Source of the DNA: Anabaena lutea FACHB-196
GTDB taxonomy: Bacteria; Cyanobacteriota; Cyanobacteriia; Cyanobacteriales; Nostocaceae
DNA: 36,939 bases
Reading direction: 5' to 3'
NCBI RefSeq assembly: GCF_014698305.1
Contig: NZ_JACJST010000037.1
Span: 1-36,939 of the forward strand
Numbering within the stretch: the stretch's first letter is position 1; the number at the start of each line of letters is the position of its first letter. Both the position numbers and the translations under genes were made by a program. This document shows, in pieces, positions 5,508 through 35,057 of this stretch. The notes under the pieces are model-generated. The model did not search any database and was not told the DNA's origin. It was given only the letters and a program-made list of their open reading frames with translations.

Positions 5508-5910
5508 TTATAATTTATGTAAAAGTTCTTGATAAGTAACAATTTCAGTATTTTCAAATTTTGTCATCACTAATAAATCTTGATCACCAGTGACTAAAAA
5601 ATTTGCGTCACTATCTTTTGCTAGTGCTAAAAGATAATTATCTTTTGCATCCCGACAAATAAAAACTTCTGAGGTTATATTTATAAATACACAAATAGTT
5701 CGTAAAAGTTGAATTAATTCATCGACTTTGTTAGACGGAAAATATTTTTGTAATTTAGAACGTTGAGTTACTAAAGTAATTTCTTCTAATATTTGTTCAG
5801 AAATTACTACTAGAATTTTTTCTGCAACTAAAAGGTTTTTTAAATCTTTCAGTTCTTTACTAATCAAAAAACTAATCCAAAGATTGGTATCAATAATTAT
5901 CTTATATCAT
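5508..5910 (-). pseudogene. PIN-domain toxin with disrupted 5' end
   Basis: This is the toxin ribonuclease of a type II toxin-antitoxin pair (PIN family, COG1569-like). The frame reads YKIIIDTNLWISFLISKEL at its N-terminus and later CRDAKDNYLLALA and FLVTGDQDLL, so the acidic PIN residues are present. However, no normal start exists in this frame. The only ATG (5910-5908) is one base out of frame and overlaps an in-frame TGA (5909-5907). The first standard-type start in frame, TTG at 5867, would drop the IIDTN strand with the first catalytic Asp. Either a one-base insertion followed the start codon, inactivating the gene, or translation begins at a rare ATA/ATT codon (5900-5895). Its likely antitoxin lies about 100 bases upstream, rather than overlapping as is usual. 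Confidence 0.6.
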
Positions 5911-6008
5911 TTTACTTTGAAGCTGCACATAATTAAGACAACTCCAAACTATTGCTATATCTAAATTTTAAGATTTTCAATTCTGTGCAAGCTCAATGAA
6001 AATTGATA

Positions 6009-6245
6009 TTAACTGCTTTGTTTTCTGTCATAAATTTGAGAGCGGACAATTTCAACCTCTTCAGTAATTTCTGCTAATGATAATTCATCAGTTTGAAATA
6101 CTTCCAATAACTCTGTTAATTTATGATTCAAGGTTTCTTTTTCTAGTTCTTTGCTAAGTAACAATTTTTCTGAATCAGAAAGTTGTTTAACTAGAGTCAG
6201 AATTTGCTCAAATGTCAATGGCAATTGATAGGTATTTTGTAGCAT
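6009..6245 (-). CDS. Antitoxin-like partner of the PIN toxin (VapB15-type)
   Basis: A 78-aa protein, MLQNTYQLPLTFEQILTLVK at its start, of the small helical family that precedes PIN toxins in many cyanobacterial genomes. ATG 6245 is chosen because AGGAG lies 10 bases before it; the longer frame start at 6272 has no such site. The middle LSDSEKLLLSKELEKE and the tail ITEEVEIVRSQIYDRKQ are typical of the family. The C-terminus would bind and neutralise the toxin. With the toxin gene apparently broken, this may be an orphan antitoxin. Confidence 0.65.
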   Translation of the reverse strand: MLQNTYQLPLTFEQILTLVKQLSDSEKLLLSKELEKETLNHKLTELLEVFQTDELSLAEITEEVEIVRSQIYDRKQSS

Positions 6246-6280
6246 AGTGTTAATTCTCCTACTTTTGATCAATCCTTATA

Positions 6281-6526
6281 TTATACATTGTCTTTATATT
6301 CATACAAAATTGTTTCAATGACTGGAACATTAGAATTATCAGCTAGATTTGCGTCGATGCGAGCAAGATAGGGCAGTCCAAGTTTACTAATTGCATCTGC
6401 TGCTAAAGTTAAGAAATCTTCAAATTCTGTATCAACAACACATCCAATTTCTATATTTAATCCTTCTGGTAAATGAAAAATTACATTAATTCGAGCTTGC
6501 AGCCCAACTACAGTTCCATGTATCAC
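6281..6526 (-). CDS. Shortened clan-AA aspartic protease-like protein
   Basis: An 81-aa protein beginning at GTG 6526. It overlaps the stop of the upstream gene by four bases (GTGA), so the pair is translationally coupled. It resembles the small retropepsin-like (clan AA) proteins of cyanobacteria: a beta hairpin, then VVDTEFEDFLTLAADAISKL and a second strand pair. Family members normally read D-T-G-F; here the triad is D-T-E. The protein also ends about 35-40 residues earlier than usual, lacking the last strands. It could be inactive as a protease or act only as a binding partner. The family assignment comes from recognising the motif and the gene pairing. Confidence 0.5.
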   Translation of the reverse strand: MIHGTVVGLQARINVIFHLPEGLNIEIGCVVDTEFEDFLTLAADAISKLGLPYLARIDANLADNSNVPVIETILYEYKDNV

Positions 6527-6795
6527 TGTGCTGTCCTGATCAATGTACCACCAACAGCATAAACTGCGTTAAAGCCAATTCGTCCTGCCCAAATTGGTGC
6601 ATCAACTTGTTTAGTTTGTATTTTGCGACTTGTGATTATTAAATCATCACCAATTTTATATTCACCTGTTTCTACATTAATTGAAATAATTTTACCAATG
6701 TTTTCTGCCGTCTCTACTAGAGGGAGAATTTTATTTTCATAAAGTTCTTTGCCACGTTTGGTAATTTCTTCACCACTGAGTTTAGGGTAAGACAT
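6523..6795 (-). CDS. Conserved cyanobacterial small protein, partner of a clan-AA protease
   Basis: A 90-aa protein starting MSYPKLSGEEITKRGKELYE. ATG 6795 is preferred over the TTG at 6816 because it gives the family's usual N-terminus. The middle carries GKIISINVETGEYKIGDDL and the end AGRIGFNAVYAVGGTLIRTA. It occurs in cyanobacteria as the first gene of a pair with clan-AA aspartic protease-like proteins, an arrangement like that of toxin-antitoxin modules. It has no known activity. It overlaps the next gene by four bases, and its promoter should lie in 6800-6896. Confidence 0.6.
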   Translation of the reverse strand: MSYPKLSGEEITKRGKELYENKILPLVETAENIGKIISINVETGEYKIGDDLIITSRKIQTKQVDAPIWAGRIGFNAVYAVGGTLIRTAQ

Positions 6796-6896
6796 AGGGA
6801 CAATTTTTAACTCCAAGTTAATAGACTTATGGTGCTATTCTAAGACAGAAGCTACAGCTAATTATTAGTTCACGAGGCTGTCTTCTTTCTTGGTTA

Positions 6897-7973
6897 CTAA
6901 CTTACAATTCCTTTCAGTTTCTCTCCTGGAAGTACTTTAGGTTGATTTATTACTTCGGCTGAAGGAGAAATGTATTTAATAGCAAGTATACGTACCTCTA
7001 TCACTTCTAGAAAATAGGGCTTTAGGAATTTAATTGTATACACTCTCCGCCTCACATCTTCAGATGATGAGTAATTACTATTAGTAAAGCCTATCATACT
7101 CCAAGAAACATCTTTTATTCTTTCCAATTTTATAGTTAATTCTGGGTTGATAGAGCCACCATATTTTAGAAGTAAGTTTTCGCAGTCTGTATATATTCGT
7201 TCAAAAACTGTAACAAGAAATTCTTGCCATGATAGTTGACCTTTATTAGACAGATTCTTTAAATCCTTTTTTTCAAAAACATTAGTAATGGCTTCTATTG
7301 CAGATACATCATAACTCTGCAAATTGGTACAAATAGTTTTATTAACTGCTTCTTCTGCTTTTTGATGTCCTAAATCATCTGCCAGAAAGTAATTCAGGAA
7401 AACACCAAAATAGTTAACAGATTCACAAAACTTTGTAGCTACTAAAATAGTTAATGGGTAGACTACAATTTTTACTTCTTCTATTTGTTGCTGATTTGTA
7501 AATATTCTTTCCCACTCTGAATAGTATTTTTTGAGCAGGTCATGATTATTTTCATTTGCTAAATAGCTGCATATATCTTCCCAGAAAACTATATTTACAG
7601 GAAATTTTGCTTCTAATTTGCGTTTTTCGTTCAAGTCCCTAATAAAGTCCTGGATTTTGGTATCTCTTGATTCTGTGCTTGCGATAATATACTCGCTAAT
7701 TGGTGAGGAAAAATTCTCTGCTTTTGCAATTTCTATCTCAATTTTATGCTGAGTTAGAGTATTGTCTTGATAGCGTTTACACTGAACAGCTAAGTAGTTA
7801 CCAGAGCCATTTTGCTGACCATAGATATCAATACCATTTTGAGCTTGTCCACTTCTTCCATATCTCTGTGCATGGGGATCTTGCCACCGACGGGTGTAAA
7901 TTTCCCACATAATATCCTCGAATTCATCCCAGGACTTAGGTTTAGGCAAATCACTTGTAGAAGGTGTAGGCAT
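6897..7973 (-). CDS. Unrecognised protein with N-terminal Mrr-like PD-(D/E)XK nuclease domain
   Basis: A 358-aa protein on its own on the minus strand. Residues 14-140 look like a restriction-endonuclease fold: a helix with WDEFEDIMWEIYTRRW (E19), then GRSGQAQNGIDIYGQ (D49), then YLAVQCKRYQ (Q64-x-K66). This is the D...QxK form of the PD-(D/E)XK site seen in Mrr-type enzymes and in nuclease effectors of defence proteins. Residues 140-358 are mixed alpha/beta with no motif I recognise; there is no P-loop, HTH or membrane helix. The predicted role is DNA cleavage, possibly in defence, with the C-terminal half as sensor or target-binding part; that role is inference. It sits among toxin-antitoxin-like genes in AT-rich sequence. 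No clear ribosome binding site precedes ATG 7973. Confidence 0.65.
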   Translation of the reverse strand: MPTPSTSDLPKPKSWDEFEDIMWEIYTRRWQDPHAQRYGRSGQAQNGIDIYGQQNGSGNYLAVQCKRYQDNTLTQHKIEIEIAKAENFSSPISEYIIASTESRDTKIQDFIRDLNEKRKLEAKFPVNIVFWEDICSYLANENNHDLLKKYYSEWERIFTNQQQIEEVKIVVYPLTILVATKFCESVNYFGVFLNYFLADDLGHQKAEEAVNKTICTNLQSYDVSAIEAITNVFEKKDLKNLSNKGQLSWQEFLVTVFERIYTDCENLLLKYGGSINPELTIKLERIKDVSWSMIGFTNSNYSSSEDVRRRVYTIKFLKPYFLEVIEVRILAIKYISPSAEVINQPKVLPGEKLKGIVS

Positions 7974-13634: not shown

Positions 13635-13678
13635 TGATCTCAAAAAAATAGTCAGATGATCTCAAAAAAATAGTCAGA
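13635..13678. repeat. Perfect tandem duplication of a 22-bp unit
   Basis: Two identical 22-bp units (13635-13656 and 13657-13678), each starting TGATCTC and ending AGTCAGA around a run of seven A, abut exactly. They lie about 200 bp before the DUF3352 start (minus strand) and 57 bp before the IsrB element's first hairpin. Two helical turns per unit would suit a cooperative protein site, but slippage duplication is equally possible. Confidence 0.85.
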
Positions 13679-13734
13679 CTCTCAGCCACAAGTTATTCTA
13701 CGCTAGAGGAATAATAGTATTTGTACTCAGTCAA

Positions 13735-13994
13735 TAACCCCACCCGTCGATAGGGATGGGGCTTGTAACTAACAAAAGTTACGTGTTTGACTAGCCCATT
13801 GAGACTAATCCTGATACGCACTTCCAAATACTTCCCCAGTTTGGATTATCTGCAAGACTGTTTGTTAAGTCGTTGGGTTAAGCCAAGACATTTTGGAATA
13901 GTTGGGCGAGGGGACTTGTACTTGTCTTGGAAAATCGCTCTACTTGGGCAAAGCCCAAGACCGCGTTTTCCGCTTACTCGAAGGATTATCTCTT
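13735..13994 (+). ncRNA. Candidate omega RNA (HEARO-like) of the IsrB element
   Basis: IscB/IsrB guide RNAs are encoded directly upstream of the nuclease ORF, with the guide at the 5' end. Here the 260 bases before isrB are rich in stems. Stem 1 is CCCCACCC (13738-13745) with GGGATGGGG (13753-13761) around a GTCGATA loop. Stem 2 is GTAACT (13765-13770) with AGTTAC (13777-13782). Late stem CTTGGGC-AAA-GCCCAAG spans 13943-13959. AGCCCA near 13793-13798 could pair with TTGGGC near 13903-13907 as a long-range contact. The CCGTCGATAGG loop context fits what I recall of HEARO RNAs. The guide would be the roughly 16-20 bases before 13735. Open frames through this region are probably shadows. The exact ends are estimates. 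Confidence 0.6.
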
Positions 13995-15107
13995 ATGCGA
14001 GTACCCGTAATTTCAGCAAATAATATTCCATTAATGCCAACAAAACCTAGTCGTGCTAGGCGTTGGATTAAAACTGGTATTGCAATTGGTAAATTCAACA
14101 AATTAGGTATTTTCTATGTTCAGTTGACCTGTGTACCATCTGATACCCAAACACAAGAGATTGTAATTGGATTAGACCCTGGGAAAATGTTCTCTGGTGT
14201 GGCTGTTCAATCTCAAAAATACACACTACAAATGTTGCACCTAGTCCTTCCATTTAAAACAATTAAAGACAGAATGAAACAACGGTCTATGATGCGTCGT
14301 GGTAGACGTGGTAGACGAATTAACCGAAAATTATCTTTCAGCAAACGTAGCCATCGACAAGCTAGATTTGACAATCGTCGTAGCTCCAAACTACCTCCAA
14401 GTATTCGAGCTAATAAAGACTTAGAATACCGCACAATTACTTTATTATGTGAAATCTACCCAGTAAAAACAATTGTTATTGAAGAGGTAGAAGCAAGAGG
14501 AAATAAGAGTTTTAGCCCTGTCATGGTTGGTCAAAGATATCAAATTAACCGACTATCTGAACTGACTAATGTGGAATTAAAAAAAGGGTGGGAAGCATCC
14601 AACCTTCGTCAATATTTGGGATTGCACAAAGAAAAATCTGATAAGTCTTTACAAATCCCAGAAACTCATGCCGTTGACGCTGTTACTTTGGCTTGTTCAG
14701 AATTTGTGAAATACCAAACATGGAACGACATTAAAAATCATGGTGCATCTTGGGTAGGCAATGTAACTATTACTAATGCACAATTTACAATTTTACGTCG
14801 TCCTCCAATTAGCCGTAGACAACTACATTTAATGGTTCCATCAAAGGGTGGAAATAGACGTAAATATGGTGGAACTACAACAAGGCATGGATTTAGAAAA
14901 GGTGATTTTGTAGAAGCTACCCAGGGTAAGAAAACATTTTTTGGTTGGGTTAGTGGAGACACGGAAAAACAAGTTTCAGTTAGTGATTGTAACTGGAAAA
15001 GATTAGGACAATGCACTGCTAAAAAAGTCCGATTGATTAAGCGTTACACGGGATTAATCGTGTTGTCAACTCGGAAAATGTTTAATTTAACGACATCGAG
15101 TCATTAA
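13995..15107 (+). CDS. isrB: IsrB: HNH-less IscB-family RuvC nuclease (RNA-guided nickase type)
   Basis: A 370-aa protein of the IS200/IS605-associated IscB/IsrB group, relatives of the Cas9 ancestor. ATG 13995 opens with MRVPVISANNIPLMPTKPSR, which contains the PLMP motif (12-15). RuvC-I is EIVIGLDPGKMFSGVAV (D61). The Arg-rich bridge helix covers 93-130 (MMRRGRRGRR). RuvC-II is TIVIEEVEARG (E163/E164) and RuvC-III is ETHAVDAVTLA (H225, D228). Only about 55 residues separate RuvC-II from RuvC-III and no HNH domain is inserted, which is what separates IsrB from IscB. The C-terminal 240-370 would be the target-adjacent-motif interacting region. All RuvC acidic residues are kept, so strand nicking is expected. 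No TnpA transposase is nearby, so the element is non-autonomous or domesticated. Confidence 0.85.
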   Translation: MRVPVISANNIPLMPTKPSRARRWIKTGIAIGKFNKLGIFYVQLTCVPSDTQTQEIVIGLDPGKMFSGVAVQSQKYTLQMLHLVLPFKTIKDRMKQRSMMRRGRRGRRINRKLSFSKRSHRQARFDNRRSSKLPPSIRANKDLEYRTITLLCEIYPVKTIVIEEVEARGNKSFSPVMVGQRYQINRLSELTNVELKKGWEASNLRQYLGLHKEKSDKSLQIPETHAVDAVTLACSEFVKYQTWNDIKNHGASWVGNVTITNAQFTILRRPPISRRQLHLMVPSKGGNRRKYGGTTTRHGFRKGDFVEATQGKKTFFGWVSGDTEKQVSVSDCNWKRLGQCTAKKVRLIKRYTGLIVLSTRKMFNLTTSSH

Positions 15108-15114
15108 ATTAAAC
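15080..15114 (+). terminator. Perfect 11-bp inverted repeat at the isrB end
   Basis: GTTTAATTTAA (15080-15090) and TTAAATTAAAC (15104-15114) are exact complements around 13 bases and straddle the isrB stop. Together with the next hairpin this probably marks the 3' end of the transcript and element. Confidence 0.6.
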
Positions 15115-15125
15115 CCGCTATCCCT

Positions 15126-15153
15126 CCCCAGGTTGCTTCGCACCAAGCTGGGG
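15126..15153. mobile_element. Right-end hairpin of the IsrB insertion
   Basis: CCCCAG (15126-15131) pairs with CTGGGG (15148-15153), with a TTG/CAA inner stem. Subterminal hairpins of this sort are the ends recognised in IS200/IS605-type elements. The element would thus span about 13735-15170; the exact cleavage sites are not visible. Confidence 0.45.
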
Positions 15154-15395
15154 TATCTCGCGGAAAACAGATGAAAATAGATTACGGTGTGGTATAAGAG
15201 ACTCTTCGATGATATAAATCTGAAAAATATCAGATGAAATCAGGAGATAGAGACTTGGGAGCAAAATGAGAAGATTGATTCAAATCATCCCATCCCCAAG
15301 AAAAATCCCGATCAAATAATCATGTTGATTGGGGATATCCACGTGCAATCGCTATTTGTATGAAAATTTCAGGATTACAAGGTCAGTAATAATCA

Positions 15396-17972
15396 ATGTT
15401 GCAGTCTTATTTTGATACCGAGAATAACAGACATAAATCTTTTGAGTTACCAGGGGCTAAACCACACTATAACCCCGATAGACCGGGACAAGTAGAGCAT
15501 ATTTTTCTAGACCTAAATTTGGATATCCCGCACCAAAGTTACTACGGTAATTGTAGCATTCGTCTATTGCCAATCCGCAATAATATTGATCGTTTGACCT
15601 TGGATGCTGTAAACCTGAATATCCAATCTGTACAGGTAGACGAAGTAATACAAAAGTTTGAATATGACGGAGAAAAGCTTTCTATTCAACTTTCTCAACC
15701 AACTCAGATAGGTAATAGATTATTAATTGCGATCGCTTACTCAGTAGAAAAACCCCAACGAGGGATTTACTTTATTCAACCAGACAAACACTACCCGCAT
15801 AAACCCACCCAAGTCTGGACTCAGGGAGAAGACGAAGACTCTCGGTATTGGTTTCCCTGCTTTGACTATCCAGGACAGCTATCAACTTCAGAAATTCGTG
15901 TCCGTGTCCCCAAACACCTCATTGCAATTTCCAACGGTGAACTGATTGATACAGCAGTTGATGGTGATGACAAAATTTACCATTGGTCACAGCAGCAAGT
16001 TCATCCTACTTACTTAATGACATTAGCAGTAGGTAACTTTGCAGAAATTCGGGATGAGTGGAAAGGTAAACCTGTTACCTACTATGTCGAAAAAGAACGG
16101 GAAGCAGATGCTAAACGTAGCATGGGTAAAACTCCCCGCATGATCGAATTTTTGAGCGAAAAGTATGGTTATTCCTATGCTTTCCCCAAATATGCCCAAG
16201 TTTGTGTAGATGACTTCATTTTTGGAGGGATGGAAAACACCTCAACCACCCTGTTAACAGATCGATGTTTACTAGATGAACGTGCAGTATTAGATAACCG
16301 CAACACAGAAAGCTTAGTTGTCCATGAACTAGCACACCAATGGTTTGGGGATTTAGTAGTAATTAAACATTGGTCTCATGCTTGGATTAAGGAAGGAATG
16401 GCTTCCTATTCTGAAGTCATGTGGACAGAACATGAATATGGTGACCAAGATGCAGCATATTATCGCTTATTGGAAGCACGTAGTTACTTAAGCGAAGATG
16501 GCAGTCGCTACCGTCGGCCAATGGTAACTCATGTTTACCGAGAAGCAATTGAACTTTATGATCGACACATTTACGAAAAAGGATCTTGTGTTTATCACAT
16601 GATTCGCACAGAATTGGGAGATGAATTATTTTGGCAAGCTATTCAAATATTTGTTCAAGATAATGCTCACAAAACTGTAGAAACAGTAGACTTACTAAGG
16701 TCAATTGAAAAAGCAACTGGACATAATCTCACTTTCCTTTTTGACCAGTATGTTTATCGTGGTGGTCATCCAGATTTTCAAGTTGCTTACTCTTGGGATG
16801 GTGATGCTAATTTAGCCAAGGTGACTGTTACTCAAACCCAAGCAAGTGATGACAGTAAGGATTTGTTTGACCTGAGAATTCCCATAGGTTTTGGTTACAC
16901 TCAGTCAGAATCAGCACTTAAAACTTTCACTGTGCGCGTGAATGAACGAGAACAAAGTTTCTATTTTCCATTAACAGAAAAGCCAGATTTTATCAGCTTT
17001 GATGTGGGCAATAATTACCTGAAAACTGTAGCTTTAGAATATCCAGTCCCGGAACTAAAAGCACAGTTGCAATTTGATCCTAATCCTGTTTCTCGCATCT
17101 ATGCAGCCGAAGCTTTGGCTAAAAAAGGCGCATTAGAAGCTACTAAAGCATTATCAGCAGCTTTACAAAATGATCCGTTTTGGGGTGTGCGGGTAGAAGT
17201 AGCTAAACAATTAGCAGAAATTAAATTAGATCAAGCCTTTGATGGTTTAGTTTCTGGTTTGCAAGATCCCAGTCCTTATGTTCGCCGTGCTGTGATAGAG
17301 TCTCTATCTCAAATAAAAACCCATACAAGTTATAAAGCTGTTAAAGGTTTTGTTCAAGATGGCGATGCGAGTTACTATGTGGAAGCTGCTGCTTGTCGGA
17401 CTATTGGGGCAATAGCGGCTGCTAATTTGGAAGATAAACCCCACGAAGAAAAAGTCATCAAGCTACTGAAAACTGTTTTAGAAGAAAAAGCAGGTTGGAA
17501 TGAAGTTGTACGCAGTGGTGCAATTGCTGGTTTAGCAGAATTTAAAACCTCAGAATCTGCTTTGAATTTGCTGATTGAATACACTAAACTCGGCATTTCC
17601 CAACCGTTACGTCTAACAACAATTCGCAATTTAGGCAAAATTTCTGTTGGTCAAACTCCTACTAATATTGAACGGATTTTAGATCGATTAGCAGAAATAG
17701 CTAGAGAGACTTTCTTTTTAACGCAAATGGCAGTAGTGTCAGCATTGGGACAAATGGAAACACCGAAAGCGATGGGCATTTTACAATCTTTAGCTAATCA
17801 AACAGCAGATGGGCGTGTCCGTCGTTATGCTGAGGAGGAAGTTACCAAAGTCCAAAAGAATATTGGCCCAGAAAAAACCTTGCGTCAAATGCGTGAAGAA
17901 CTAAATCAACTCAAACAACAAAACCAGGAACTAAAAAGCCGCTTGGAAACTTTGGAAGCAAAATCAAAGTAG
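15396..17972 (+). CDS. M1-family aminopeptidase with C-terminal HEAT-like repeats
   Basis: An 858-aa zinc metallopeptidase that removes N-terminal residues from peptides in the cytosol. The exopeptidase loop is GGMEN (277-281) and the zinc site is VHELAHQW (H310, E311, H314) with the third ligand in WIKEGMAS (E333), 19 residues on. The N-terminal beta domain and the catalytic domain take about 560 residues. From about 570 on, PVSRIYAAEALAKKGALEAT, VRVEVAKQLAEIK and YVRRAVIESLSQIK are HEAT-like helical repeats in place of the usual ERAP-type C-terminal domain. The last 35 residues form a coiled coil (LRQMREELNQLKQQNQELKS). It is a cyanobacterial version of aminopeptidase N. The upstream ribosome site is weak. 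Transcribed alone. Confidence 0.9.
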   Translation: MLQSYFDTENNRHKSFELPGAKPHYNPDRPGQVEHIFLDLNLDIPHQSYYGNCSIRLLPIRNNIDRLTLDAVNLNIQSVQVDEVIQKFEYDGEKLSIQLSQPTQIGNRLLIAIAYSVEKPQRGIYFIQPDKHYPHKPTQVWTQGEDEDSRYWFPCFDYPGQLSTSEIRVRVPKHLIAISNGELIDTAVDGDDKIYHWSQQQVHPTYLMTLAVGNFAEIRDEWKGKPVTYYVEKEREADAKRSMGKTPRMIEFLSEKYGYSYAFPKYAQVCVDDFIFGGMENTSTTLLTDRCLLDERAVLDNRNTESLVVHELAHQWFGDLVVIKHWSHAWIKEGMASYSEVMWTEHEYGDQDAAYYRLLEARSYLSEDGSRYRRPMVTHVYREAIELYDRHIYEKGSCVYHMIRTELGDELFWQAIQIFVQDNAHKTVETVDLLRSIEKATGHNLTFLFDQYVYRGGHPDFQVAYSWDGDANLAKVTVTQTQASDDSKDLFDLRIPIGFGYTQSESALKTFTVRVNEREQSFYFPLTEKPDFISFDVGNNYLKTVALEYPVPELKAQLQFDPNPVSRIYAAEALAKKGALEATKALSAALQNDPFWGVRVEVAKQLAEIKLDQAFDGLVSGLQDPSPYVRRAVIESLSQIKTHTSYKAVKGFVQDGDASYYVEAAACRTIGAIAAANLEDKPHEEKVIKLLKTVLEEKAGWNEVVRSGAIAGLAEFKTSESALNLLIEYTKLGISQPLRLTTIRNLGKISVGQTPTNIERILDRLAEIARETFFLTQMAVVSALGQMETPKAMGILQSLANQTADGRVRRYAEEEVTKVQKNIGPEKTLRQMREELNQLKQQNQELKSRLETLEAKSK

Positions 17973-30926: not shown

Positions 30927-33900
30927 ATGGCTGAAGAACTAAACTTTCAAAGTGATGCTAGTAATCGCCTCCCACCCCAAAACATCGAAGCAGAAGAAGC
31001 GATTTTGGGGGGAATTTTACTAGATCAAGAAGCAATTACTCGAGTTAGCGATCGCCTCGTTCCCGAAGCTTTTTACATTAGCGCTCACAGAGAAATATAT
31101 CAAGCAGCGCTGCGTCTTCATGCTCAAGGTAAACCCACAGACTTACTTTCCCTTACCAGCTGGCTAACTGATAACGACAAACTTACACTCATCGGTGGTA
31201 GAAATAAATTAGCAACTTTAGTAGATCGCACAGTTTCAGCAGTTAACATTGATGCATTGGCAGGATTAGTAGTTGAAAAATACCTGCGACGGCAATTAAT
31301 TAAAGCTGGTAATGAAATTGTTCATCTTGGTTTTGAGACAGAAACCGAATTACCTATCGTTCTCGATCAAGCAGAACAGAAAGTTTTTGGCGTTACTCAA
31401 GAAAAACCCCAATCAGGTTTAGTTCATATTTCTGATACCCTGATTAATACCTTTCAAGAAGTAGAAAAGCGGCATGAAGGCATCGCTTTACCAGGTATCC
31501 CTTGCGGTTTTTATGATTTAGATGCTATGACTACCGGTTTCCAGCGCTCTGATTTAATTATCGTCGCTGGTAGACCATCAATGGGTAAATGCCTGAGTTA
31601 TGACTCAGAAATCGTCCTAGCAGATGGACAAATTTCCACAATTGAAGAATTGTATCAGCAACGGCAAGGTTCATTATTAACATTAAATGATGATTGGAAA
31701 TTGACCTTTACCCAACCATCTGCATTTGTAGATGATGGAATTAAACCAGTTTTCCGAGTCACAACTCGCTTGGGTCGGGCAATTGAAACTACAATTACTC
31801 ACCCATTTTTAACTATTAAAGGTTGGCAGAGGTTAGAAAATCTCCAAGTTGGAAATAAGATTGCCATCCCTCGGAAAATAGATGTGTTTGGTACAGAAAC
31901 TATCCGCGAGTGTGAAGTCAAATTATTAGGATATTTAATTGGTGATGGTGGTTTAACTAATAGCACTCCTAGATTTACAAACAGTAATCCATTACTGCAA
32001 ACAGAGTTTTCCCAAGCAGTAACTGAATTTGGTGGTTTGTCAGTAAGATGGGAAGATTCCCAAGGACAACGGACACCTTCATTATGTGTTCGCGGAGATT
32101 TGGAATTTATTGCTACTCAAAGACAACTTTTTGCGGAAAATCTCAAAATTGCTATTAGTTCTCGTTCATTATCTGCTAAAAAATTGAGCGATGAACTAGG
32201 AGTAACTCCATCTTTACTTTCTATGTGGCAGAAAGGAGAGTGCGTACCCAATGATGACACTTTTCAGCTATTGTGTAAAACTCTGGGAATGGAGTTAGAA
32301 GAATTTGCACCTCATGGATTTGCTAGTATCAGCAAATCGAGTAAAAATTCTTTGAGAATTTGGTTAGAAAAATTAGGTTTATGGGGTAAAAATGCTCATG
32401 CTAAGAATATTCCATCAATTGTCTTTAAATTAGAAAAATCACAATTATCATTGTTTCTAAATCGTCTCTTTGCTACTTATGGTTGGGCTACTTTACTTAA
32501 TAGTGGTCAATCACAATTAGGTTATTGTACAGTCAGCGAAAAACTAGCAAGACAAATTCAACATCTGTTATTAAGATTTGGAATTATTGCTGCTTTGAAA
32601 AAACGGTCTGTAAAATATAATAATACTCGTAGACCAGCATGGCAATTAGATATTACTGATGCTTTATCTATCAAAAACTTCATTGCAGAAATTGGCATTT
32701 TTGGCAAAGAAGCAGCATTAGCAAAAGTTACAGAAGCAATATATCAAAAAAGATATCAAACCAATCGTGACTTAATACCTGTAGAGATTTGGGAACAGAT
32801 AGCATTAGCTAAAGGTAGCGAAACTTGGAGTAGTTTAGCTCAACGGGCTGGGATTAAAAGCTATACAAATATCCATGTCGGTAAGCGGGCATTAAAACGG
32901 GAAAGATTATGGATTTTAGCCACTGCTTTAGATAATTTACCACTTCAGCAATTAGCAAATAGTGATGTATATTGGGATGAAATCATTTCTATTGAACCAA
33001 TTGGTAACAAACAAGTTTATGATTTAACAATTCCCGAAACACACAACTTTATTGCTAATGATATTTGTGTTCACAATACGGCATTTTGCCTGAACTTAGC
33101 ACACAATATCGCCTCTGGTTACAAATTACCAGTCGCTGTTTTTAGTTTAGAAATGTCCAAAGAACAACTAGTACAGAGACTATTAGCCAGTGAAGCAGGA
33201 ATTGAAACTAGTTATTTACGCAGCGGACGCATCAGTCAAACCCAGTGGGAACCTTTAAGTCGTGCAATTGGTAATCTTTCCGATATGCCAATTTTTATTG
33301 ACGACACCGCCAATATAACAGTTACGCAAATGCGGAGTCAAGCGCGACGACTTCAAGCAGAACAAAATATGCAATTGGGATTGATCGTGATTGATTACCT
33401 GCAATTAATGGAAGGTGGTGGTGATAATCGGGTTCAGGAATTATCCAGAATTACGCGATCGCTCAAAGGTTTAGCCCGTGAATTATCTGTGCCAATCATA
33501 GCTCTATCTCAGTTAAGTCGAGGCGTGGAATCTCGCACCAACAAACGCCCGATGTTATCTGATTTACGTGAATCCGGTTGTTTAACAGGTGATAGTCTAG
33601 TCACATTGGCAGATACCGGATTACAAGTCCCAATTAAAGAATTAGTATGTAAATCTGGTTTTGCAGTTTGGGGACTGAATGAAAACACAATGAAGTTAGA
33701 AAGGGCAATTGTCAGCAATGCCTTTTCTACAGGTGTGAAACCAGTATTTACCTTGAAAACTCGATTAGGAAGAAAAATTAGAGCGACAGGTAATCACAAA
33801 TTCCTCACAATTAATGGTTGGAAAAGACTTGATGAGTTAAGTCCTAAACAACATCTATGTTTACCAAGACATCTACCTATTTCTGGTAAACAAACCATGA

Positions 33901-35057
33901 CTTATGCTGAGGTTGCATTATTAGGACATTTAATAGGTGATGGTTGTACATTGCCACGTCATGCTATACAGTACACTACCAGGGAGAGAGATTTAGCAGA
34001 AAAAGTTGCATATTTAGCAAAAGAATTGTTTGGAGATGCCATTGTTCCTAGAATTTCCCCTGAACGTGGTTGGTATCAGGTTTATTTACCAGCAGCACAA
34101 CGCTTAACTCATAGTGTTAGAAATCCAATAGCCAAATGGCTAGACTCTCTTGGAGTTTTTGGTTTAAGGTCTTACGAAAAGTTTGTGCCTCAAGACTTGT
34201 TTTCACAGCCCCAAGAGTTAATAGCTTGCTTTCTGCGGCATCTTTGGTGTAAAGATGGTTCTATAAAGTTGCTTGCTGGCAAAAAACCAAGACCTATTGC
34301 ATATTATGCAAGTAGCAGTGAAAGACTAGCGTTTGATGTTCAGGCACTTTTATTAAGATTGGGCATTAATGCAAGACTGAAAATGATTCCTCAGCCTGGT
34401 AAGGGTAGAAATCAGTATCATGTCACAATTACTGGTAAGCCTGACCTTGAGTTATTTATTCAAAAGATTGGAGCGGTAGGAGAATACAAATTAGGTTCAT
34501 TACAAGAAATCTCTGAACACCTTGAAAATTGCATTCATAACCCTAACCGAGATGTAATACCCAAAGAGGTTTGGAAAACTTATGTTGTACCTGCAATGCA
34601 AACTATTGGGATGACAACCAGAGAAATACAATATCGCATGAAAAAATCATATTGTGGTTCTACACTGTACAAAGCAAATTTAAGTCGAGAAAGAGCATTA
34701 AAAGCTGCTAATATTGTTGAATCAAGTGAGTTACTTGCCCTTGCCAACAGTGATGTATATTGGGATGAAATTGTGGCAATCATACCTGATGGAGAAGAAG
34801 AAGTATTTGACTTAACAGTTTCTCATTTGCATAATTTTGTAGCTAATAATATCATTGTTCACAATTCAATTGAACAAGACGCAGATTTAGTAATCATGCT
34901 ATACCGTGATGAATACTATACACCAGACACACCAGATCGAGGAATAGCCGAAGTGATAGTGGCTAAACACCGTAACGGGCCAACAGGTACAGTTAAACTT
35001 TTATTTGATCCGCAATTTACAAAGTTTAAAAATCTAGCTCGACCAAATAATTATTAA
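30927..35057 (+). CDS. dnaB: Replicative DNA helicase DnaB with two inteins
   Basis: A 1376-aa precursor of the hexameric replication-fork helicase. The three extein pieces (1-221, 718-884, 1314-1376) add up to 451 aa, the normal DnaB size. Piece 1 has LPPQNIEAEEAILGGILLD and ends within Walker A at GRPSMGK; piece 2 resumes TAFCLNLAHNIAS and has IVIDYLQLMEGGG (Walker B region) and ends LSDLRESG; piece 3 is SIEQDADLVIMLYRDEYYTP to the end. The first intein splits the P-loop between Lys and Thr, so unspliced protein cannot bind ATP. Both insertion points are known intein sites in bacterial dnaB genes. Splicing residues (Cys1, His-Asn at the end, Thr or Ser after) are all present at both. Confidence 0.95.
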   Translation: MAEELNFQSDASNRLPPQNIEAEEAILGGILLDQEAITRVSDRLVPEAFYISAHREIYQAALRLHAQGKPTDLLSLTSWLTDNDKLTLIGGRNKLATLVDRTVSAVNIDALAGLVVEKYLRRQLIKAGNEIVHLGFETETELPIVLDQAEQKVFGVTQEKPQSGLVHISDTLINTFQEVEKRHEGIALPGIPCGFYDLDAMTTGFQRSDLIIVAGRPSMGKCLSYDSEIVLADGQISTIEELYQQRQGSLLTLNDDWKLTFTQPSAFVDDGIKPVFRVTTRLGRAIETTITHPFLTIKGWQRLENLQVGNKIAIPRKIDVFGTETIRECEVKLLGYLIGDGGLTNSTPRFTNSNPLLQTEFSQAVTEFGGLSVRWEDSQGQRTPSLCVRGDLEFIATQRQLFAENLKIAISSRSLSAKKLSDELGVTPSLLSMWQKGECVPNDDTFQLLCKTLGMELEEFAPHGFASISKSSKNSLRIWLEKLGLWGKNAHAKNIPSIVFKLEKSQLSLFLNRLFATYGWATLLNSGQSQLGYCTVSEKLARQIQHLLLRFGIIAALKKRSVKYNNTRRPAWQLDITDALSIKNFIAEIGIFGKEAALAKVTEAIYQKRYQTNRDLIPVEIWEQIALAKGSETWSSLAQRAGIKSYTNIHVGKRALKRERLWILATALDNLPLQQLANSDVYWDEIISIEPIGNKQVYDLTIPETHNFIANDICVHNTAFCLNLAHNIASGYKLPVAVFSLEMSKEQLVQRLLASEAGIETSYLRSGRISQTQWEPLSRAIGNLSDMPIFIDDTANITVTQMRSQARRLQAEQNMQLGLIVIDYLQLMEGGGDNRVQELSRITRSLKGLARELSVPIIALSQLSRGVESRTNKRPMLSDLRESGCLTGDSLVTLADTGLQVPIKELVCKSGFAVWGLNENTMKLERAIVSNAFSTGVKPVFTLKTRLGRKIRATGNHKFLTINGWKRLDELSPKQHLCLPRHLPISGKQTMTYAEVALLGHLIGDGCTLPRHAIQYTTRERDLAEKVAYLAKELFGDAIVPRISPERGWYQVYLPAAQRLTHSVRNPIAKWLDSLGVFGLRSYEKFVPQDLFSQPQELIACFLRHLWCKDGSIKLLAGKKPRPIAYYASSSERLAFDVQALLLRLGINARLKMIPQPGKGRNQYHVTITGKPDLELFIQKIGAVGEYKLGSLQEISEHLENCIHNPNRDVIPKEVWKTYVVPAMQTIGMTTREIQYRMKKSYCGSTLYKANLSRERALKAANIVESSELLALANSDVYWDEIVAIIPDGEEEVFDLTVSHLHNFVANNIIVHNSIEQDADLVIMLYRDEYYTPDTPDRGIAEVIVAKHRNGPTGTVKLLFDPQFTKFKNLARPNNY
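31590..33077 (+). other. DnaB intein 1 (496 aa) at the GRPSMGK/T site
   Basis: Starts CLSYDSEIVLADG (block A, Cys1), has the block-B TxxH in ETTITHPFLT, and ends FIANDICVHN before Thr718. The homing endonuclease is of LAGLIDADG type: block C is LLGYLIGDGG, but block E reads FLNRLFATYGWA, lacking the Asp of the usual T-D-G, so DNA cleavage is probably lost. Between them, at about intein residues 184-230, lies an XRE/Cro-type helix-turn-helix: SAKKLSDELGVTPSLLSMWQ followed by KGECVPNDDTFQLLCKTLG. This extra DNA-binding domain explains the large size. Confidence 0.88.
33579..34865 (+). other. DnaB intein 2 (429 aa) at the RESG/S site
   Basis: Starts CLTGDSLVTLADTG (Cys1), block B is KIRATGNHKFLT, and it ends FVANNIIVHN before Ser1314. 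This is the site of the well-known Synechocystis DnaB intein. The LAGLIDADG motifs are both intact: LLGHLIGDGC and CFLRHLWCKDGS, so the homing endonuclease could be active. Its C-terminal block shares LANSDVYWDEI with intein 1. Confidence 0.9.

What the first reader, a model, noticed from the sequence alone, without database searches (positions are those of the whole stretch)
13735..15170. Complete IsrB element with predicted omega RNA and end hairpins, without transposase
The ORF at 13995-15107 has the PLMP motif, Arg-rich bridge helix and all RuvC acidic residues, but no HNH between RuvC-II and RuvC-III. This matches IsrB, the RNA-guided nickase type related to the Cas9 ancestor. The 260 bases before it carry at least three good stems, and two inverted repeats follow the ORF. 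No TnpA is present. An intact nuclease with its RNA in a chromosome without the transposase raises the question of whether it was kept for another role. The guide would be the 16-20 bases left of 13735.
Basis: partly seen in the sequence, partly recalled or inferred. Interest (0 to 1): 0.8.

Follow-up and report, generated by a model that had tools for sequence, protein, structure and literature searches.

The report
Solo IsrB RNA-guided nickase mobile element
A 1.4-kb mobile DNA element in a filamentous cyanobacterium carries an intact small RNA-guided DNA-nicking enzyme (IsrB) with its guide RNA; relatives lacking it at this site show where it inserted, so it looks like an ordinary jumping element of a known kind rather than a gene kept for another job.

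Summary
ORF 13995-15107 (370 aa) is a full-length IsrB (best solved relative DtIsrB, E 7.7e-51) with RuvC residues, bridge helix and PLMP, and no HNH. 13730-13921 matches the HEARO/omega RNA model (48.2 bits, E 2.9e-8, below the curated cut-off of 83). A 33-sequence alignment supports the fold: 34 of 53 pairs change on both sides. Exact empty sites in 3 of 4 congeners fix the element at 13730-15170 (1441 bp, no target duplication). The empty target is followed by ATGA, an IsrB target motif.

'Kept for another role' is not supported. The site is polymorphic, 34 related RNA copies carry 32 guides, and the other copy here has decayed. It is best read as a non-autonomous IS200/IS605-type element that needs a transposase in trans; none was identified.

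One group-level regularity may be new: 23 of 48 insertion sites place the element directly before an ORF of at least 50 codons starting at the target-motif ATG, against 16-19% of ATGA sites in this genome. The window copy is not such a case.

The parts
13730..15170 (+). whole element, 1441 bp, no target-site duplication
   Evidence: contiguous empty site in G005, G006, G007
13710..13729 (+). guide segment (host flank left of the element)
   Evidence: lies directly 5' of HEARO position 1; identical (20/20) in the empty sites of G006 and G007, 1 mismatch in G005
13730..13921 (+). omega RNA (HEARO) scaffold
   Evidence: RF02033, 48.2 bits, E 2.9e-8; 34 of 53 consensus pairs have two-sided changes in 33 sequences; window keeps 51 of 53 pairs
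13924..13973 (+). palindromic repeat inserted between omega RNA and isrB; in 4 of the 5 copies from this genus and in none of the 10 others aligned
   Evidence: alignment of 15 copies; hairpin -21.2 kcal/mol, z -3.74; weaker matches elsewhere in the genus
13981..13985 (+). AAGGA, probable ribosome binding site of isrB
   Evidence: sequence, 9 nt before the ATG; AAGGA or GAGGA in the 15 copies
13995..15107 (+). isrB, RNA-guided nickase, 370 aa
14175..14177 (+). RuvC-I Asp61 codon
   Evidence: invariant
14481..14483 (+). RuvC-II Glu163 codon
   Evidence: invariant
14667..14678 (+). RuvC-III His225...Asp228 codons
   Evidence: invariant
15000..15011 (+). Arg336 and Gln339, aligned with the TAM-reading R323 and Q326 of DtIsrB
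   Evidence: alignment (chain numbering minus 150, my reckoning) with residue roles from PMC9581776
15080..15114 (.). inverted repeat 1 over the end of isrB
15126..15153 (.). inverted repeat 2, right-end hairpin
15171..15174 (+). ATGA, target-adjacent motif in the host flank
   Evidence: follows the target in the three empty sites; 20 of 20 distinct-site copies have ATGA within 10 nt of the aligned right end

Best explanation
It is a non-autonomous IS200/IS605-type (ISC) mobile element whose only gene is the OMEGA nickase IsrB. A transcript running from the left flank through the omega RNA would give a scaffold with the 20 flanking bases as guide (inferred; no RNA data). The occupied site is safe because the guide there is followed by GTCA, the element's own first bases, instead of the motif ATGA (shown in sequence). 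If a transposase supplied in trans excises the element (inferred), the empty site has target plus ATGA (as the three congeners show). IsrB would nick the non-target strand there and favour copying the element back from a sister chromosome (inferred from published IsrB and TnpB work). Its persistence is explained by this selfish cycle, not by a host role.
For: End-to-end IsrB protein match with catalytic and TAM-reading residues. Omega RNA model match and strong covariation. Exact empty sites in 3 of 4 congeners; the fourth also lacks the element but is diverged at the junction. ATGA beside the target fits the NTGA motif of DtIsrB and the NTG motif of DsIsrB from Dolichospermum (PMC9581776). 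ATGA within 10 nt of the aligned right end in 20 of 20 distinct sites, about 6% expected per site. 34 omega RNA copies carry 32 different guides. The last 18 guide bases have no second match with 0 or 1 mismatch in this genome. Two copies 98.6% identical at different sites in Dolichospermum DET69. dN/dS 0.08-0.17 against 14 relatives.
Against: No transcript, nicking or transposition was measured. No cognate TnpA was found: three Y1_Tnp matches exist in the genome, one of them weak, and none of 33 TnpA loci from 12 genomes has ends like this element (best: 21 bases at E 0.99). HEARO scores below Rfam's curated cut-off. The empty state of relatives could reflect excision rather than absence. Two guides are shared by two genomes each (C30 copy and G005; L095 and L137), so some copies stay at one site across species. 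The tree does not resolve the subfamily (15 of 25 inner branches open). No promoter stands out above chance.
Confidence: 0.88

Rival explanations
1. Domesticated IsrB: the intact nickase and RNA are retained by the host for regulation, defence or another role at this locus.
For: Intact ORF, purifying selection, no transposase in the element, only one intact copy in the genome. Two other insertion sites are shared between genomes.
Against: Absent from this site in 4 of 4 congeners. The guide comes from the insertion site, and 34 copies carry 32 guides. The best match of the guide elsewhere in this genome has 2 mismatches. Element ends are complete.
Confidence: 0.05
2. Relic: an immobile, inactive copy that has only recently stopped working.
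For: The other copy in this genome (C30) has lost about 770 bp of its centre, and a third RRXRR place is a broken fragment. Window omega RNA breaks 2 of 53 consensus pairs. A hairpin of about 50 nt sits between RNA and ORF.
Against: Catalytic residues intact, low dN/dS, exact ends. The hairpin is shared by copies at three different sites, which suggests that copies with it have moved, unless the repeat inserted at this point more than once.
Confidence: 0.07

Closest known systems
DsIsrB of Dolichospermum sp. and its omega RNA (PMC9581776; passages and section 8 read)
   Same: IsrB of a Nostocales cyanobacterium with cognate omega RNA; DsIsrB recognises NTG and was assayed for nicking in vitro (on an ATGG target).
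DtIsrB of Desulfovirgula thermocuniculi (PDB 8dmb)
   Same: Same domain order, RuvC, bridge helix, TAM-reading Arg and Gln.
   Different: Distant in sequence. Compared with the HEARO model the window's RNA lacks several stretches.
Microcystis ORF2067, IsrB-like, found inserted in cyanophage Mic1 gp49 at 5'-ATGA-3' (PMC11237433, passages read)
   Same: IsrB gene with short flanks that moved and sits at ATGA.
   Different: Other host; jump into a phage gene.
IscB / ISC elements
   Same: PLMP, bridge helix, RuvC, HEARO RNA.
   Different: IscB has an HNH domain; the NCBIfam IscB model reaches 93 bits, below its cut-off of 175.

Membership tests
IsrB (OMEGA nickase) | about 350 aa, PLMP, bridge helix, split RuvC | tested here: met
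IsrB (OMEGA nickase) | no HNH between RuvC-II and RuvC-III | tested here: met
   no HNH in Pfam scan; about 60 residues between the motifs
IsrB (OMEGA nickase) | TAM-interacting C-terminal domain | tested here: met
   alignment with DtIsrB to residue 354 incl. R336 and Q339; by sequence only, the AlphaFold model was too weak (pLDDT 50.6)
IsrB (OMEGA nickase) | HEARO-type omega RNA directly upstream | tested here: met
   (E 2.9e-8, below the curated cut-off), covariation
IsrB (OMEGA nickase) | NTGA/NTG motif 3' of the target | tested here: met
   ATGA in 3 empty sites and at 20 of 20 right ends
IsrB (OMEGA nickase) | RNA-guided nicking of the non-target strand | not testable with these tools
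   needs a biochemical assay
IscB | HNH domain | tested here: not met
TnpB | TnpB domains in Pfam | tested here: not met
   Pfam scan at E up to 10 gives RRXRR only
IS200/IS605 superfamily element | no target duplication, hairpin ends, fixed motif at one flank | tested here: met
IS200/IS605 superfamily element | own TnpA (autonomous form) | tested here: not met
   none on the window's contig; three Y1_Tnp matches elsewhere in the genome

The most novel reading that the evidence does not exclude
Cyanobacterial IsrB elements use a target motif, ATGA, that doubles as a start codon. About half of their insertion sites sit directly in front of an ORF that begins at that ATG, and in two of three right-end types the element's last bases form a strong ribosome binding site (GAGGTCTT|ATG, AGGAGTTTTG|ATG). 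The element would thereby replace the leader it displaces, so insertion costs the host little while the nickase guards the site. The window copy, with a weaker right end and only an 8-codon frame behind its ATG, would belong to the other half.
Probability: 0.35. Interest if true: 0.6.

Novelty: new member of a known kind. Interest (0 to 1): 0.4.

Why it matters
It gives a natural IsrB locus with its insertion site, guide, target and motif all fixed by related genomes, so the homing-back model for a nickase (rather than a double-strand cutter) can be tested. The start-codon pattern, if it holds, would explain how such elements spread without killing the genes they land at.

Tried and rejected
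TnpB or IscB identity: rejected. Domestication: rejected on polymorphism and guide diversity. Helper transposase by end similarity: 33 Y1_Tnp loci (30 returned plus 3 of this genome) gave no convincing match (one 21-base match to the right end at E 0.99); only loci returned by the tool were compared, not every match listed. A tblastn with this genome's three TnpA proteins found none in the loci then held except their own; other TnpA types could be missed. Promoter and terminator scan: nothing above chance. Structure: AlphaFold model too weak to use; no fold search was run. Single-genus origin: the four genus copies are one side of a branch in 0% of 200 bootstrap trees, but that part of the tree is unresolved (stops in rows were read as X).

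Limits of the counts; 34 of 54 loci fitted the left-end pattern, 20 did not and were left out; right ends were placed by alignment to the window element (E 1e-10, ending at element position 1425 or later) and ATGA sought in the next 20 bases; 28 of the 48 sites were recognised by a motif list that I wrote by eye and that required xTG, so the motif in those 28 is not independent evidence (47 of 48 are ATGA, one ATGG); two loci without a recognisable end (L015, L040) were dropped; rows sharing the same 20 bases were counted once; the control comes from this genome alone while the sites come from many; the window's right-end type reached no strong ribosome-binding match (0 of 20 at -5 kcal/mol or below) against 68% of the other 28; copies within a type are related by descent. 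One of the 23 start-codon cases looks like an internal ATG (L019: its Pfam match begins at profile position 23). One of the two 98.6%-identical Dolichospermum copies (L138) carries an intron and has a stop in its isrB match. Searches for the start-codon idea in print: 0 papers; 2; 3; for intron plus IsrB, (4); listings only, nothing on either in titles and abstract starts, and the library lacks most subscription papers.

Full report
Observation. The frame at 13995-15107 is open and encodes 370 residues. Pfam gives RRXRR only, E 1.8e-46; the NCBIfam IscB model reaches 93 bits, below its cut-off of 175. Among solved structures the best match is DtIsrB (8dmb), E 7.7e-51, aligned over residues 2-354, while the best stretches of the IscB entries end at residue 183 or before. 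D61, E163, H225 and D228 are in place and invariant in the 16 aligned sequences, window included. R336 and Q339 align with R323 and Q326 of DtIsrB, which read the target motif (PMC9581776, passages); Gln339 is His in two of the 16 rows. The upstream region matches HEARO at 13730-13921, 48.2 bits, E 2.9e-8, under the curated cut-off of 83.

Ends, guide and target. A search with the right flank found the orthologous site in all five genomes of the genus held, this one included. In G005, G006 and G007 the window's 13729 and 15171 are adjacent, with nothing lost or duplicated at the junction, so the element is 13730-15170. G004 also lacks it, but its sequence at the junction has diverged. The 20 bases left of the element are identical in G006 and G007 and differ once in G005; each is followed by ATGA. 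In the occupied site the same bases are followed by GTCA, so the locus should not target itself. The last 18 guide bases have no second match with 0 or 1 mismatch in this genome.

The family. P0001 finds relatives at E 1e-20 or better in 83 of 217 genomes of the family, this one included, and 12 named loci in Anabaena, Nostoc, Dolichospermum and Calothrix. In 33 aligned omega RNAs, 34 of 53 consensus pairs have two-sided changes; the window keeps 51 of 53. Of 54 loci tried, 34 gave a clear left end beginning GTCA, with 32 different guides; one shared guide is the C30 copy of this genome and its counterpart in G005, the other is L095 and L137 in two Dolichospermum genomes. Right ends of 20 distinct sites all have ATGA within 10 nt of the aligned end, against about 6% by chance. 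Protein dN/dS against 14 relatives is 0.08-0.17.

Copies in this genome. Besides the window there is an internally deleted copy on C30 at the same site as an intact copy in G005 and a broken RRXRR fragment on C34. In Dolichospermum DET69 (G055, recognised because its second contig has the length and match coordinates of that plasmid record) two copies 98.6% identical sit at different sites, which speaks for recent transposition.

Transposase. None lies in the element. The genome has three Y1_Tnp matches, one weak. One sits beside a gene that by eye is tnpB. No TnpA locus compared has convincingly similar ends. Mobilisation in trans is therefore inferred. That the element's other end, read on the minus strand, finishes in TTGAC as in ISDra2 is recalled, not tested.

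Mechanism. Shown by sequence: intact protein and RNA, guide beside the element, target plus motif in empty sites, motif absent from the occupied site. Inferred: transcription, RNP formation, nicking of the regenerated empty site, copying back. PMC9581776 reports nicking 8-11 nt upstream of the motif by DtIsrB, and DsIsrB of Dolichospermum recognised an NTG motif. PMC11870625 (abstract) reports gene-drive behaviour for TnpB; whether a nickase does the same is open.

Start codons. In 23 of 48 distinct sites an ORF of at least 50 codons starts at the motif's ATG; in host DNA of this genome (window flanks plus ten 20-kb pieces) the share is 397 of 2127 ATGA sites, and 90 of 575 whose junction lies outside predicted genes (binomial p 4.0e-6 and 1.6e-7). 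Pfam was run on 20 of the 23 proteins. Nine have a domain that begins at profile position 8 or earlier within their first 12 residues (for example SSB, DUF1350, ArsA, the first domain of DAHP synthase), which fits true starts; seven have domains further in and three none, which says nothing; one (L019) looks internal. The 28 right ends of the other types pair well with the anti-Shine-Dalgarno (68% at -5 kcal/mol or below, against 19% of 132 gene starts and 8% of random sites), while the window's type does not (0 of 20). Survival of harmless insertions could produce the same bias. The window's ATGA opens 8 codons only; the next gene, an M1-family peptidase, starts at 15396.

Verdict. A well-preserved new member of a known kind, close to a biochemically tested group. 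Its lack of a transposase is normal for the copies read here. The start-codon pattern and the nested elements noted below are more interesting than the window copy itself.

Noticed in passing
L129-L132 (Microcystis phages LMM01, MaMV-DC, MaMV-CH02, MaMV-DH01) and viral contigs L179-L188, L190, upstream of isrB: IsrB with a weak HEARO match (E 0.0005 to 0.09) lies in the same gene setting in four Microcystis phages, preceded by a short irregular array of truncated left-end units (GTCACTAACCCCGCCCTAAGGCG plus variable bases). The pattern starts 4-5 times in the four phages and 0 to 7 times in the 11 viral contigs read, a CRISPR-like layout.
   Followed up: partly
L134, L135, L138, L140, also L136 and L137 (Dolichospermum DET69): A group II intron of about 2.2 kb (two in tandem in the plasmid copy, each with an annotated reverse transcriptase) is inserted at AAGGATTA|TCTCTTTATG, between omega RNA and isrB, in several IsrB elements; in L137 a related intron sits inside the ORF.
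   Followed up: partly
window 13924-13973; G000 C13, C56; G004, G007: The hairpin inserted between omega RNA and isrB resembles small palindromic repeats at other places of the genus (79-91% identity over 35-56 nt).
   Followed up: partly
L003 (G000:C30:14526-15193): Internally deleted IsrB copy keeping both ends, the omega RNA and an open frame of 180 codons; the copy at the same site in G005 is intact.
   Followed up: partly
L016:5400-5978 and L026:994-1477: Two omega-RNA-like left ends in tandem before one isrB, with different guides.
   Followed up: no
window 13636-13678: A 21-22 nt tandem duplication in the left flank, present also in G007 but single in G005 and G006.
   Followed up: no
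window 30927-35057: DnaB helicase gene interrupted by what look like two inteins with LAGLIDADG domains (two intein-splicing matches).
   Followed up: no
window 5508-7973: PIN-domain protein and an Mrr-like restriction endonuclease gene near each other.
   Followed up: no
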